Source: Lachnospiraceae bacterium (lineage in GTDB: Bacteria; Bacillota; Clostridia; Lachnospirales; Lachnospiraceae). From it: a DNA stretch of 36,494 nt. Below the pieces are notes generated by a model. That model was not told where the DNA came from, made no database searches, and was given only the letters and a program-made list of their open reading frames with translations. The stretch lies in the NCBI GenBank assembly GCA_017938285.1, contig JAGBBW010000149.1:1-36494 (forward strand), written 5' to 3'. Every line of letters starts with the position of its first letter. The stretch's first letter is position 1. This document shows, piece after piece, positions 2,892-36,494 of this stretch. A program made the position numbers and the translations under genes.

Positions 2892-3713
2892 TTATTCAAA
2901 ACACTTCACTGCCACATCTTCCACTTCCAGATGGTCGCATGGCAGAATCGTATTGGCAAACTGACGGAATTTCTCTGCACCATCACTGACATAAAACTTA
3001 TGCGCAGGCGGCGTCTGGACCGTTTCCTGGTTCCGGAGCAGGTGTGCTTCCTCCAGTACATAAATCAGTTCCCTCGCTGTTTCATACGCCGGATTTACCA
3101 GGGTTACCCCCTCTCCCATCACTTCCCCAATAACTCCCCGCAAAAGAGGATAATGGGTACAGCCAAGTACCAGGGTATCCACCTGTTTTTCCTTCAGACC
3201 TGCCAGGTAACGCTCCGCTACCTGCCTTGTCACCGCATCATTCAGCCATCCTTCTTCTGCCAGATGTACGAACAGCGGACACGCCTTGCCAAATACCTCT
3301 ACCTCCGGACTGGTTGCCTTTAAAAACTTCTCATAAATCCCACTGGAAATCGTTCCTTCGGTGGCAATAATGCCAATCCGCTTATTCTGTGTTGCCTTGG
3401 CTGCCATTTTTGCTCCCGGCTTTACCACCCCGATAAAAGGAACTTCAAATTCTGCCTTAATCGTTTCCAGCGCCAGCGCACTGATGGTATTACAGGCAAC
3501 CACAATGGCTTTGACATCCTGGGTCATCAGAAATTTTGCAATCTGCCGGGAATACGCCGTTATCGTTTCCGCAGATTTATTTCCATAAGGCACTCTGGCT
3601 GTATCCCCGTAATATACGATGGATTCTGCCGGAAGTGCATTCATAATTTCTTTTACAACGGTTAAACCGCCAACACCGGAGTCAAATACTCCAATTGGGG
3701 CATCCTGTTTCAT
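2892..3713 (-). CDS. murI: Glutamate racemase
   Basis: Interconverts L- and D-glutamate without a cofactor and supplies D-Glu for peptidoglycan. The 273-residue protein has the IGVFDSGVGGLTV block at 7-19, the first catalytic cysteine in ACNT (Cys74) and the second in GCTHYP (Cys185), with GDTARVPYG at 36-44. The ATG at 3713 has an AGGAAAGGA ribosome site; an upstream in-frame start at 3800 would overlap ddl by about 40 bp and add a family-atypical tail, so it is rejected. Length matches the family. It follows ddl by 46 bp, and both act in supply of D-amino acids for the cell wall, which supports a functional operon. Confidence 0.96.
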   Translation of the reverse strand: MKQDAPIGVFDSGVGGLTVVKEIMNALPAESIVYYGDTARVPYGNKSAETITAYSRQIAKFLMTQDVKAIVVACNTISALALETIKAEFEVPFIGVVKPGAKMAAKATQNKRIGIIATEGTISSGIYEKFLKATSPEVEVFGKACPLFVHLAEEGWLNDAVTRQVAERYLAGLKEKQVDTLVLGCTHYPLLRGVIGEVMGEGVTLVNPAYETARELIYVLEEAHLLRNQETVQTPPAHKFYVSDGAEKFRQFANTILPCDHLEVEDVAVKCFE

Positions 3714-4833: not shown

Positions 4834-5057
4834 ACTTCCTCCATTCCGTCTTTCAACAGCTTCTTCTTTTCTATTTTATTCCGTCTGCCATGATTTATGG
4901 CATAATTTCACACACTGTTCTTTATTTTACTCTCTTTCCATTTATAATTCAAGAAAAAAGTGATACCTGCTTTTCCTGATGTATAAATCTTTTTCTTTGG
5001 TCCATACTCTGGTTAAGAATATTACGGAGCAGCCCTCCGTTCAGAAAGGACTCCACT

Positions 5058-5858
5058 ATGAAAGAACGTATACTTTCCATTTGTTTATTACTACTCGCTG
5101 CCATTACTGTCTGGGCTATTGTTGCAGAGCTTCCCAGCAAAGAATATGCAACACCATCCACCAGACCTCTGGACGACATCCCTGCGGATACCCCTCCTTC
5201 TGTAGCCGGTGAGGTTATCCGGCTACATATTCTGGCAGATAGCGACAGCACCATGGACCAGACCGTGAAGCTGGCTGTCCGGGACGCCCTGCTTCCCTAT
5301 CTGAATGCAGCCACACTGACCGCAGACACCAAAGAAGAGGCCATGGAACTGCTCAAAGAACAATGCAGTGTTTTTCAGGAAGTGGCAGATACCACGCTGT
5401 CCCGCCTTGGCATGGACTACACGGCCTCTGTTTCCGTAGACTCCCTGTATTTTCCCATCCGTATTTATGGCAGCCAGACTTATCTTTCCGAAGATGCTGT
5501 ACTGTTTCCACCGGGTTATTATGACAGCGTCCAGGTCATCTTAGGCGAAGGAAACGGACATAACTGGTGGTGCCTGGCTTTTCCTTCCCTGTGCTTCATC
5601 GATGCCGCCTATGACTATATTCCAAAAGATTCCGATCTGTATAAAACCAGGGTGGCCACCGTGGAAAAAAGTACGCTGGACAAGCTGTTTTACGGCAGCA
5701 CAGATACAGAGATACCGGAATATTCCAACGAAATCCAGACAGAATACAAAACCCTGCTCATGGAACAGGGCGTTTCCGCAGAACCGGAAGAAGATGATAC
5801 CGTAACCGTCTATTTTGGAAGCAGACTCTGGGAACTTATAAAAGAACTATTTTCATGA
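5058..5858 (+). CDS. spoIIR: Stage II sporulation protein R
   Basis: SpoIIR is the forespore-made signal that triggers SpoIIGA to process pro-sigma-E in the mother cell. The 266-residue protein has an N-terminal hydrophobic segment (about 4-23) acting as signal or anchor, a proline-rich linker, then the family hallmark VIRLHILADSDS (53-64) and VRDALLPYL, and later GEGNGHNWWC near residues 167-176 with LCFID. AGAAAGGA precedes the ATG by about nine bases. The gene is divergent from ddl with 224 bp between them. In B. subtilis it is transcribed by sigma-F; I looked for a sigma-F promoter here and did not find a convincing one. Confidence 0.94.
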   Translation: MKERILSICLLLLAAITVWAIVAELPSKEYATPSTRPLDDIPADTPPSVAGEVIRLHILADSDSTMDQTVKLAVRDALLPYLNAATLTADTKEEAMELLKEQCSVFQEVADTTLSRLGMDYTASVSVDSLYFPIRIYGSQTYLSEDAVLFPPGYYDSVQVILGEGNGHNWWCLAFPSLCFIDAAYDYIPKDSDLYKTRVATVEKSTLDKLFYGSTDTEIPEYSNEIQTEYKTLLMEQGVSAEPEEDDTVTVYFGSRLWELIKELFS

Positions 5859-33782: not shown

Positions 33783-35657
33783 TTACTCTTCAAATGCAAC
33801 CTTCACCTGTTTTTTATAAAAAGCCACTCCGATTTTCATAATCTTCTGAATGCCGTCCTGCTGCAGTTCCATGGCATATTGCTTCGTTTCCATTTGCCCG
33901 ATTGCCTGCCGGCTAAGCTCTTCCAGCTTTTCTGCAATCTGGCTTTCATCGATTTTCTCCTGTGGAACCTTAAGTTCTAAAAGCAGTCCCGGAAGCCGTT
34001 TATCCAGCGGTTTCATCTGAATATCATATCGTCCTGCCCCGCTTTCCCGGTTTGAGGTCACCTGATAAATATTATTCATCACCGCATAAATTCCTAACAT
34101 CAGACCATGATAAAAATTTTCGTGGGCATAGTCAAAGGAACTGATGCTTTGTATCAGGAAATCTTCCAAATGTTTCTGAAATTCGCTCATGTTCCGCTTA
34201 AGTAACGCATGTTTAATAGAAATCGCTGTTGCCTGTTTGAAGTGACCTGAAAAAGCGGAAATGATTTCTTTCTCGTATACATAAAATATTTCCTTATTCG
34301 GAACTGCGATATTACATATATTATTTCCATCAAAGCAGAACTCCGTTGTCACAGCCTTCAAGTAACCTGCCGACAGCAAAAAGCTGTACACCGACGCCGG
34401 ATTATTCTCAATTTCCGGATAAATCACAGAAGTATCCACATAAGACGATATGTTTTTGCCCTGCAGTAACTGCTGCAGATTTTCAAAAATTTCCTCCGTG
34501 CCTCCACTAATTATCTTCCGGATAAAGCTGTTATCACCGGTAGACTGCCAAAATGCTTTCGGTGTGCAGGCTTCATCCAAATAGTTGAGCACCGACCATG
34601 GATTGAATATTTCCGTATTTCCAAAACGGTAACCGTCGTACCATTCACAAATCTCATCAAATTTTTCTCCATGGCCGTAGTAAGCCAGCATCTCTTTTAC
34701 TTCGTCCGCTGTAAATCCGAAGTATTCGCTGAAACGCTCCTCCATGATAGAATTTACTTTCAGGTTATTCATGCCGCTAAAAATACTTTCTTTGGCCACC
34801 CGGAGAATTCCTGTCATGAAACCGAAGGAAAGATGTGGATTATCTTTGAAACCACCGGAAAACAGCGTACGCATGAAGCCAACTACCTTGTCGTAATACC
34901 CCATCACATAGCCCTGTTGTATTGGTGTATCATATTCATCAATAATAATAATTGGTGCTACCCCATGATGGACATGAAGCATTCTGGAAAGATTCAGAAA
35001 CGCCATGGCAATATCCGTCTCTCCTGCGTCTCCCTCCAGAACCCCTGTCAGATATTTTTTTTCATAGGAACTGATTTTCCCGCTATCCAGCAGTTCACTG
35101 TGCCGTTCAAATTCATTTCTCAAAATTCTGCAAATATACTCATAGGCTGCTTCCCAGGTTTCGCACTTTACATCTTTAAACGTAACATAAATTACCGGGT
35201 ATTTCCCCTGATATTCCTGATATTTTGTACCACAGGTCCATATTTTTTTGTCTGTAAAATATATCGAAGTATCTTCTTCACTTATCTCAAAAAAGGTCCG
35301 GAGCATATCCATAGTCAATGTTTTACCGAATCTGCGAGGTCTGGTAAACAAGGAAACCTGTGGAATAGCATCGAGAAAATCCCGGAGAAGCAACGTTTTA
35401 TCCACATAATAATAACTTGTTACTGCTTTTTTAAAATCGGAAATTCCGATCGGCAAAGGTTTCAGGTCACCTGTGTCCTGCCATGTTTTCCCTGCTGTTT
35501 TTCGTCCATCCTCCGGTCGTCTGGCTGTTTCAGGAATAAGCCAGTACTTACCCTCTTTTTTGGCACCACTGATTTTTCCTTCGCGGCACAACATAGTAAC
35601 CCGTCGTTCTGTCATTTTCCACTGTTCCGCAGCAGCAGCAGAATTCATATATCGCAT
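33783..35657 (-). CDS. HTH-AAA-ATPase-like-PD-(D/E)XK nuclease fusion protein
   Basis: A 624-residue protein with three parts. Residues 1-45 (NSAAAAEQWKMTERRVTMLCREGKISGAKKEGKYWLIP) look like a MerR/excisionase-type winged HTH. Residues 65-330 form the AAA-ATPase-like domain (PF09820 type): YYVDKTLLLRDFL, the P-loop-like RPRRFGKT (106-113) and Walker B IIIIDEYDT (236-244). The C-terminal third carries a PD-(D/E)XK nuclease-like core with Asp545 and ELK at 561-563. GGAGG stands right before ATG 35657, so the HTH is translated as part of the protein. It has its own promoter. Such proteins are abundant in gut anaerobes and their role (defence, selfish element or other) is not established. Confidence 0.85.
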   Translation of the reverse strand: MRYMNSAAAAEQWKMTERRVTMLCREGKISGAKKEGKYWLIPETARRPEDGRKTAGKTWQDTGDLKPLPIGISDFKKAVTSYYYVDKTLLLRDFLDAIPQVSLFTRPRRFGKTLTMDMLRTFFEISEEDTSIYFTDKKIWTCGTKYQEYQGKYPVIYVTFKDVKCETWEAAYEYICRILRNEFERHSELLDSGKISSYEKKYLTGVLEGDAGETDIAMAFLNLSRMLHVHHGVAPIIIIDEYDTPIQQGYVMGYYDKVVGFMRTLFSGGFKDNPHLSFGFMTGILRVAKESIFSGMNNLKVNSIMEERFSEYFGFTADEVKEMLAYYGHGEKFDEICEWYDGYRFGNTEIFNPWSVLNYLDEACTPKAFWQSTGDNSFIRKIISGGTEEIFENLQQLLQGKNISSYVDTSVIYPEIENNPASVYSFLLSAGYLKAVTTEFCFDGNNICNIAVPNKEIFYVYEKEIISAFSGHFKQATAISIKHALLKRNMSEFQKHLEDFLIQSISSFDYAHENFYHGLMLGIYAVMNNIYQVTSNRESGAGRYDIQMKPLDKRLPGLLLELKVPQEKIDESQIAEKLEELSRQAIGQMETKQYAMELQQDGIQKIMKIGVAFYKKQVKVAFEE

Positions 35658-35689
35658 AGTGACACCTCCTCTCTCTTTTATTTGACCTT

Positions 35690-35718
35690 ATTATGTCACG
35701 TTTATGTTGGTATGTCAA
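35690..35718 (-). promoter_or_regulatory. Promoter of the AAA-nuclease gene with TATGTCA repeats
   Basis: On the minus strand TTGACA (35718-35713) and CATAAT (35695-35690) lie 17 bp apart. Three similar heptamers, TATGTCA (35692-35698), TATGTTG (35703-35709) and TATGTCA (35711-35717) on the plus strand, cover the -10 to -35 span and may be an operator. Confidence 0.7.
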
Positions 35719-35786
35719 GGTATTCGGAAATATATAGATACATTTTGAATAAAAATGGTACCTGAATAAGCCCTGCCAGAATCAAA

Positions 35787-35835
35787 GCCTGATGCCCTCC
35801 TTTGCGTATGACAATACGCCTGCGATGCCTTTTGC
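35787..35835. repeat. Hairpin flanked by two similar short repeats
   Basis: GCGTAT (35804-35809) and ATACGC (35814-35819) form a 6-bp hairpin. On both sides lies a related motif, GCCT-GATGCC-TTTGC, at 35787-35805 and 35818-35835. The origin is unknown; the rest of 35719-35890 shows nothing more. Confidence 0.4.
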
Positions 35836-35889
35836 TTTTCAATCTATTTTCCTTCTGATATTATTTTTTTATAAGACTGACATACTACA

Positions 35890-36015
35890 GAACACGTGGA
35901 GGTGAGTGGCGGGGCTGTATAGCGGCGACCCCGCATGTTAATATGTTGTCGGTCATCCGTTAAGGAGTATAAGCAGGCACGCTATGTCATCAAAGAAGAT
36001 GCAGTTCCTGCCATG
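35890..36015 (+). ncRNA. Candidate IscB/HEARO-type omega RNA scaffold, ORF-less
   Basis: A plus-strand structured stretch. Stem A pairs GCGGGG (35909-35914) with CCCCGC (35929-35934) and has the loop CTGTATAGCGGCGA. As far as I recall, IscB omega RNAs have a similar hairpin with CTGCATAGCGG in the loop. Stem C pairs GCAGG (35973-35977) with CCTGC (36007-36011) and encloses CATC-GATG (35988-35991 with 35998-36001). AAGGAG (35962-35967) precedes only a short frame. No IscB or TnpB ORF follows. It lies beside an IS200/IS605 tnpA. The strand and function are inferred. Confidence 0.35.
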
Positions 36016-36089
36016 AATTAAGTCTGATATCTATATTTACTTTTTCTGGAAGCCACCTGAAAGGATGGTTTTGTTGTCATGCCCTTTAC

Positions 36090-36342
36090 TTCACTTCTAC
36101 CCACCACTGGGTTGTTTCAAACTTTGCCTCCTTAGTAATTTACTTGTTAATTCTATTATCTACATTAGCAGTCCTATAAAACGGACTTTATGCCTAGTGT
36201 ACTGACCGTTTGTAATTTATGGTAAAAGCACTGCCTAAGTCAGCAACCACCAGTTCAACTGGTGGTTTGTTATTAGCCCTCCAAAGGGCTATTCTTACTG
36301 CTCGCCCCACAGGGCGGTGTCGCAAGCACCATTACTGGTCCG
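36090..36342. repeat. Hairpin-rich 3' region of the IS200/IS605 element
   Basis: Between the putative structured RNA and tnpA, several short perfect hairpins appear: ACCCA-CCAC-TGGGT (36100-36113), AACCACCAG-CTGGTGGTT (36245-36267), AGCCCT-AGGGCT (36275-36290), CGCCC-GGGCG (36303-36316) and CCGCT-AGCGG (36340-36353). The AACCACCAG hairpin is a plausible right-end recognition hairpin for TnpA, as IS200/IS605 transposases bind subterminal hairpins. Confidence 0.55.
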
Positions 36343-36494
36343 CTATAAAGCGGTACTTCTCGATTCTTCTTTTCTCGATTCTTCTGCCTGCTCTCTTATA
36401 TATTTCTGCACTGCTTCTTCGGTGATATTACCAATTGTCTCAACATAATATCCCCTCGCCCAGAATGCTTTGTCCCATTTACTTTGCAATTCCG
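36343..36494 (-). CDS. tnpA: IS200/IS605-family transposase TnpA, 3' end only
   Basis: The minus strand from 36492 to 36343 encodes 49 residues and a TAG stop. KWDKAFWARGYYVETIGNITEEAVQKYIREQ matches the C-terminal part of Y1 (HuH) transposases of the IS200/IS605 group, where the FWARGY-type motif and the KYI-x-x-Q helix are typical. The rest, including the HuH and catalytic Tyr, lies beyond the right edge. The tail EESRKEESRS is basic/acidic and variable. TnpA excises and inserts single-stranded element DNA. Such multi-copy genes often break assemblies, which fits the window ending here. Confidence 0.88.
   Translation of the reverse strand, partial: ELQSKWDKAFWARGYYVETIGNITEEAVQKYIREQAEESRKEESRSTAL

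What the first reader, a model, noticed from the sequence alone, without database searches (positions are those of the whole stretch)
35890..36015. ORF-less HEARO/IscB omega-RNA-like structure beside an IS200/IS605 tnpA
A non-coding stretch folds into a GCGGGG-CCCCGC hairpin with an ATAGCGG loop core and a nested second hairpin, which recalls the omega RNA scaffold of IscB elements. No IscB or TnpB ORF is present. If correct it is an orphan guide-RNA scaffold that could act with a nuclease encoded elsewhere.
Basis: inference. Interest (0 to 1): 0.7.

Follow-up and report, generated by a model that had tools for sequence, protein, structure and literature searches.

The report
Broken IS110 bridge-RNA transposon remnant
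The hairpin is not an IscB-type guide RNA but the broken front half of a different guide RNA, the bridge RNA of an IS110 jumping gene whose intact relatives seem to use it to find the start codons of genes; the copy here has lost its enzyme, one end and half of its RNA.

Summary
The GCGGGG...CCCCGC hairpin is real, but it is not HEARO/IscB. Rfam gives no such hit in the window. HEARO is not found in the host genome, while the same model rings in 36 of 398 genomes of the phylum. Window 35829-35965 is the left noncoding part of an IS110-family element. In relative G041 the window sequence resumes after about 1.35 kb holding an IS110 transposase. The window copy lacks its left end, the 3' half of the RNA and nearly all of the transposase; the last codons and the right end remain. 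In 96 of 122 motif-bearing loci the transposase N-terminus starts 170-215 nt downstream. The intact RNA has two long-range stems with compensatory changes and two guide-like segments. One matches the element's right end. The other matches the left junction CATNNN, where CAT complements a host gene's start codon; NNN agrees in 75 of 102 elements, 6.5 expected. Two relatives show unoccupied sites. Verdict: an inert relic of an IS110 bridge-RNA transposon family that targets translation starts, as IS900 does.

The parts
35829..35965 (+). Left noncoding part of an IS110-family element: promoter-like stretch and the 5' half of the bridge-RNA gene
   Evidence: 83-95% identical to 8 places in 7 relatives, all ending at 35965; ahead of IS110 transposases
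35836..35864 (+). Promoter-like site (TTTTCA, 17 nt, TGA-TATTAT); relatives have an extended -10 TGATATAAT here
   Evidence: consensus scan, 9 of 12, 3 sites found against 0.9 in shuffles; consensus of relatives. Weak alone
35876..35882 (+). 5' strand of the outer stem (ACTGACA); its 3' partner is missing here
   Evidence: helix 1 of A1, 6 of 6 pairs with changes on both sides; window row ends at column 102
35909..35934 (+). The reported GCGGGG...CCCCGC hairpin, helix 3 of the bridge RNA
35934..35945 (+). Position of the target guide (CAT-GTT-AATATG here; CAT/TAT-NNN-TATATG in relatives)
   Evidence: the window's own left junction is lost, so no match can be tested
35951..35958 (+). 5' strand of the long second stem (GGTCATCC); its 3' partner is missing here
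   Evidence: helix 4 of A1, 6 of 8 pairs with changes on both sides
35966..36021 (+). Remnant of the transposase C-terminus (reads ...YVIKEDAVPAMN stop); the deletion junction lies between 35965 and 35987
   Evidence: 36-37 nt match 86% to the end of the L013 ORF, 35987 onward
36022..36124 (+). Right noncoding end of the element, ending TTGTTTCAAACTT (36112-36124)
   Evidence: 35987-36130 matches L013 at 74%; right end fixed by multi-copy genomes; position
36127..36131 (+). CCTCC, complement of a Shine-Dalgarno sequence: the remaining half of the old target site
   Evidence: sequence; same arrangement in relatives

Best explanation
The feature is a decayed, internally deleted copy of an IS110-family insertion sequence (DEDD transposase with a bridge RNA, also called seekRNA, in its left noncoding region). 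In intact relatives an RNA of about 200 nt lies behind an extended -10 promoter; an outer stem and a long second stem enclose hairpins, one of them the reported hairpin. The RNA carries one segment that matches the element's right end (donor guide) and one that matches the left insertion junction (target guide). Inferred mechanism, as in IS621: the RNA, bound by the transposase, pairs with donor and target DNA and the two are recombined. The target is the start codon of a gene on the other strand, so the element lies between start codon and Shine-Dalgarno sequence. Shown by sequence: homology, truncation, covarying stems, guide/junction agreement, unoccupied sites in two relatives. Inferred: transcription, binding, recombination. 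The window copy lacks the left end, the donor guide, the closing strands of both stems and the enzyme, so it is most likely inert.
For: Sharp common border at 35965 in 8 places of 7 genomes, and resumption at 35987 about 1.35 kb later in G041; the insert encodes PF01548 + PF02371, and the only two solved-structure relatives at E up to 0.001 are the IS621 and ISCro4 transposases. Transposase N-terminus 170-215 nt downstream in 96 of 122 motif loci. 13 of 36 pairs change on both sides, 0 of 500 shuffles, slid structures 1-7. Target guide NNN equals the junction NNN in 75 of 102, mean 6.5, 0 of 20,000 shuffles; still 49 of 65, 31 of 37 and 15 of 20 after removing rows over 95, 90 and 85% alike. 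Donor guide and right end: 3 of 3 C-type RNAs have the C-type end. Unoccupied sites in Enterococcus raffinosus and G769.
Against: 27 of 102 target guides do not match exactly. The three C-type elements are 88-91% alike in RNA, so that change may be a single event; L117, an ORF-less copy, has a mismatched donor end. Folding energy is unremarkable even for a complete relative (z -0.43). The RNA matches no Rfam family, so membership rests on the neighbouring gene and the guide logic. Nothing was tested at the bench. The core dinucleotide could not be fixed, and no right target guide was established.
Confidence: 0.9

Rival explanations
1. HEARO / IscB omega RNA (or a TnpB omega RNA) orphaned from its nuclease.
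For: Structured, ORF-less, next to an IS200-type tnpA fragment; the host has three genes with the TnpB zinc-ribbon domain.
Against: No HEARO match in window or host, while the model rings in 36 of 398 phylum genomes; relatives are tied to IS110 transposases, and the guide matches lie at IS110 ends.
Confidence: 0.02
2. A non-autonomous miniature IS110 element that still moves, or supplies its RNA, with a transposase given in trans.
For: ORF-less forms exist: L182 keeps left end, complete RNA with matching target guide, and right end within about 350 bp; L046, L117 and L186 keep both ends with shortened insides.
Against: The window copy has no left end and no donor guide; its sequence occurs once in the host, and no cognate transposase was found there. 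Break points differ among the copies inspected, which looks like separate decay.
Confidence: 0.05
3. A domesticated small RNA: the truncated bridge RNA is still transcribed and has gained a host function.
For: The promoter-like site and the 5' hairpin are kept.
Against: No match in the three other genomes of the genus that were searched (G001-G003); the similarity to relatives is explained by a fairly recent element.
Confidence: 0.02

Closest known systems
IS621 and the IS110-group bridge RNA (PMC11208160; passages seen)
   Same: DEDD transposase, structured RNA in the left noncoding end, guide segments with the sequence of the left target and left donor strands
   Different: Target is a start codon, not REP; the stem arrangement differs; the target guide follows a hairpin and the donor guide lies inside a long second stem; the window copy is truncated
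IS110-type seekRNA of ISEc21 (PMC11187229; passages seen)
   Same: Upstream noncoding region gives a target-matching RNA; natural reprogramming between related IS was reported there for ISEc11/ISXne4
   Different: Different target; no RNA was purified here
IS900 (PMC8141618; passages seen; Doran 1997 seen only as a title in its reference list)
   Same: IS110 family; target motif CATGNNNNNNTCTCCTT, i.e. complement of start codon and Shine-Dalgarno site
   Different: Mycobacterial element; no guide RNA described in the passages seen; not compared by sequence here
HEARO / IscB omega RNA (Rfam RF02033)
   Same: Transposon-borne structured guide RNA next to its gene
   Different: No covariance-model match; other protein family

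Membership tests
HEARO / IscB omega RNA | Match to the HEARO covariance model | tested here: not met
   positive control: 36 of 398 phylum genomes
HEARO / IscB omega RNA | iscB (or tnpB) ORF beside the RNA in intact relatives | tested here: not met
   IS110 transposase instead in 96 of 122 loci, Pfam on two of them
IS110 family element (intact relatives) | DEDD_Tnp_IS110 and Transposase_20 domains | tested here: met
   (two proteins)
IS110 family element (intact relatives) | Long noncoding region upstream of tnp in the IS110 group | tested here: met
IS110 family element (intact relatives) | Specific target without target duplication beyond a base or two | tested here: met
   two unoccupied sites
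Bridge RNA / seekRNA (intact relatives) | Conserved secondary structure with compensatory changes | tested here: met
   relatedness is not controlled by the shuffles, but slid structures fail
Bridge RNA / seekRNA (intact relatives) | Segment agreeing with target DNA, varying with it | tested here: met
   75 of 102; 31 of 37 below 90% similarity
Bridge RNA / seekRNA (intact relatives) | Segment agreeing with donor (element end), varying with it | tested here: inconclusive
   3 of 3 C-type agree, 64 of 65 A-type agree after correcting L116, but the change may be one event
Bridge RNA / seekRNA (intact relatives) | Guide for the second (right) target strand | tested here: inconclusive
   GGAGG in the RNA could pair with CCTCC, but its distance from the right end varies 0-7 nt
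Bridge RNA / seekRNA (intact relatives) | RNA is transcribed, bound by the transposase and needed for recombination | not testable with these tools
   needs biochemistry
Functional bridge RNA (window copy) | Both closing stems and the donor guide present | tested here: not met
   window homology ends at alignment column 102

The most novel reading that the evidence does not exclude
The family behind this relic is an RNA-guided, start-codon-seeking transposon: its bridge RNA carries a CAU/UAU triplet that can pair with the start codon, followed by three freely evolving guide bases. Its left end carries GAAAGGCGG or GAAAGGTGG at a fixed distance before the ATG, a possible substitute ribosome-binding site that would keep the interrupted gene translated. 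Short ORF-less forms with a complete RNA (L182) may be moved in trans.
Probability: 0.5. Interest if true: 0.72.

Novelty: new member of a known kind. Interest (0 to 1): 0.45.

Why it matters
The window copy is a relic. Its intact relatives are a natural experiment: many elements with the same target logic (start codon) but different three-base guides that mostly agree with their own insertion site. This would explain how IS110 elements such as IS900 can find translation starts, and it makes start-codon-directed insertion directly testable. The one complete RNA scanned (L090) matches no Rfam family up to E 1.

Tried and rejected
HEARO and other Rfam families: none at gathering score in the window; permissive mode on 35660-36494 gave four matches, all far below gathering score (best E 0.12 enod40, 0.4 sroD), taken as chance. 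A TnpB 3' end was my first guess from the position beside tnpA; relatives showed IS110 instead. Folding energy did not help: z -0.99 for the window stretch, z -0.43 for a complete relative. GGAGG in the RNA (35898-35902) as a right target guide was left open, because the distance from the right end to CTCC/CCTC/TCCT varies 0-7 nt. Plasmids: one record with the RNA, a Roseburia plasmid with an annotated IS110 family transposase; phages: no match. Literature: the searches listed no title or abstract start about start-codon guides in bridge RNAs; they cover only the held library and only listed rows.

Corrections: the redundancy filters used a similarity function that misbehaves on strings of 200 letters or more, so their 'unique' sets and the 'nr95' row are not used; one search repeats the test with that fault removed. 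Alignment A1 was given 61 of the 72 sequences plus the window; 8 of 1830 pairs of relatives exceed 97% identity. misread L116 (a site inside the gene); one search shows CAAACTT there. In one search the left-end block was read in 92 of 115 loci with at least 200 nt upstream; among the 23 unread, E. avium copies do have CAT. The CAT count has no formal chance control; CAT was taken as the last one within 22 nt.

Full report
Observation. The hairpin lies at about 35909-35934 on the + strand; the 28-nt stretch folds at -15.0 kcal/mol (z -1.90, 11 of 200 shuffles as stable). The rest of the described fold is unremarkable: 35890-36015 has z -0.99, the second hairpin z -0.49. No IscB or TnpB ORF was seen. 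The gene fragment to the right is an IS200-type TnpA C-terminus of 49 aa on the - strand (PF01797), cut by the contig end.

HEARO test. cmscan of the whole window gave no family at gathering score; permissive mode on 35660-36494 gave no HEARO match up to E 10. The host genome (86.7% complete) has none; that call's 14 control genomes were empty too, so I searched the phylum, where the model rings in 36 of 398 genomes, 29 above its cut-off. The negative is therefore meaningful.

What it is. A DNA search of 195 genomes (21 match some part of the 641-base query) found 8 places in 7 genomes (G015 twice, G173, G041, G096, G079, G113, G127) whose match ends at window base 35965, at 83-95% identity. 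That stretch holds a 437-aa ORF with both IS110 Pfam domains. The only solved-structure relatives at E up to 0.001 are the IS621 and ISCro4 transposases. So window 35829-36124 is an IS110-family element lacking the second half of its RNA gene and nearly the whole transposase; the last codons (stop at 36021) and the right end (TTGTTTCAAACTT, 36112-36124) remain. The left end is missing too: 35776-35836 matches a transposase-like ORF in other genomes. L046 (G173) is another ORF-less copy with a different junction. In the host the RNA region occurs once and no relative of the transposase was found; nearly the same query finds it in 18 of 299 genomes of the family at E up to 1e-100.

The intact RNA. 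In 96 of the 122 loci the transposase N-terminus begins 170-215 nt downstream; the other 26 include contig ends, a masked stretch and broken copies. On an alignment of 61 relatives and the window the consensus structure has an outer stem (6 of 6 pairs with changes on both sides), a long second stem (6 of 8) and hairpins including the reported one (1 of 9). In all, 98.3% of cells pair and 13 of 36 pairs change on both sides; 0 of 500 shuffles reach these values and slid versions give 22-47% paired and 1-7 such pairs. The shuffles do not control for relatedness. The window keeps only the 5' strands of the two covarying stems. A scan of one complete relative (L090) found no Rfam family up to E 1, and its folding energy is not unusual (z -0.43).

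Ends and target. Multi-copy genomes (E. avium, Acididesulfobacillus, Peptococcaceae CEB3) fix the ends: left CAT-NNN-TATAA..CCGCC, right GTTTCAAACTT or TTTTCAAACTT. In 91 of 92 left ends read by script CAT lies 8-14 nt before the conserved block (90 at 12-13), and in 73 of those 91 a frame on the opposite strand runs open from that ATG to the edge of the stretch. Right flanks hold CTCC, CCTC or TCCT within 14 nt in 50 of 62, against 23.5 in shuffled flanks. Two relatives show the unoccupied site: E. raffinosus has CATCATTTTTCCCTCC where E. avium L138 is interrupted, and G769 has CATGTTCTATCCTCTCC where L047 is interrupted; sequence further out continues on both sides. A third, G770, keeps the gene side only. 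The element thus lies between start codon and Shine-Dalgarno site, as IS900 does by its motif CATGNNNNNNTCTCCTT (PMC8141618, passage seen).

Guides. Just after the reported hairpin the RNA reads YATNNNTAT. NNN equals the NNN of the element's own left junction in 75 of 102 elements (mean 6.5, 0 of 20,000 shuffles). With rows over 95, 90 and 85% alike removed it is 49 of 65, 31 of 37 and 15 of 20, each 0 of 20,000. In Acididesulfobacillus the RNA reads GTG in all 8 copies, while the 7 readable junctions are GTG five times, CTG and GCG: the junction bases come from the target, and mismatches are tolerated. The second segment, GTAAACTTATC, shares AAACTT with the right end. Where the RNA reads ACACTT the right end reads CACACTT (L081, L142, L145; 3 of 3, their RNAs 88-91% alike, perhaps one event). 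Of 65 A-type RNAs 63 have the A-type end by script; L116 was misread and agrees, L117, an ORF-less copy, is a real mismatch. These are the relations described for bridge RNAs (PMC11208160, passages).

Mechanism. By analogy with IS621 and ISEc21 (PMC11208160, PMC11187229; passages seen) the RNA would be bound by the transposase and pair with target and donor. Transcription, binding and recombination were not tested here. The window copy has no left end, no donor guide, no closing strands and no enzyme, and is best read as a relic.

Short forms. Of 13 short or ORF-poor loci inspected, plus L046 and the window, break points differ. L182 stands out: left end, complete RNA with matching target guide (TGT/TGT), AAACTT donor segment and CAAACTT right end within about 350 bp, without a transposase. 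L186 and L117 also keep both ends with reduced insides.

Noticed in passing
window 36194-36237; L039 549-715; L040 597-762; L041 642-808: One arm of a small inverted-repeat element (about 167 bp, ends CTAGTGTACTGACCG) that recurs elsewhere in the host genome. In the window only one arm is left; matches to the IS200-type element of other genomes begin where the arm ends.
   Followed up: partly
window 35776-35836 (-): Fragment that matches the end of a 417-aa transposase-like ORF in G140 (L028) and places in G031 and G039; its family was not tested. It replaces the lost left end of the IS110 element.
   Followed up: partly
L182 about 5,000-5,400 (reverse strand of the motif): ORF-less miniature IS110 form with both ends and a complete RNA within about 350 bp.
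   Followed up: partly
L191 657-858: Bridge RNA with about 21 extra bases that lengthen one hairpin.
   Followed up: no
L146 (Pseudomonas putida 31753) 3112-3133: The core motif occurs without further homology to the element and near a masked stretch; cause unresolved.
   Followed up: no
G000:C35 1870-2088, C15 4619-4834, C34 17756-17971: Three host genes with the Cas12f1-like/TnpB zinc-ribbon domain in frames of 428-446 aa.
   Followed up: no
window 5058-33615: Sporulation and housekeeping genes: SpoIIR, SipL, FtsH, TilS, SpoIIE, MazG, SpoVT domains; an AAA-ATPase-like plus PD-(D/E)XK protein at 33783-35657.
   Followed up: no
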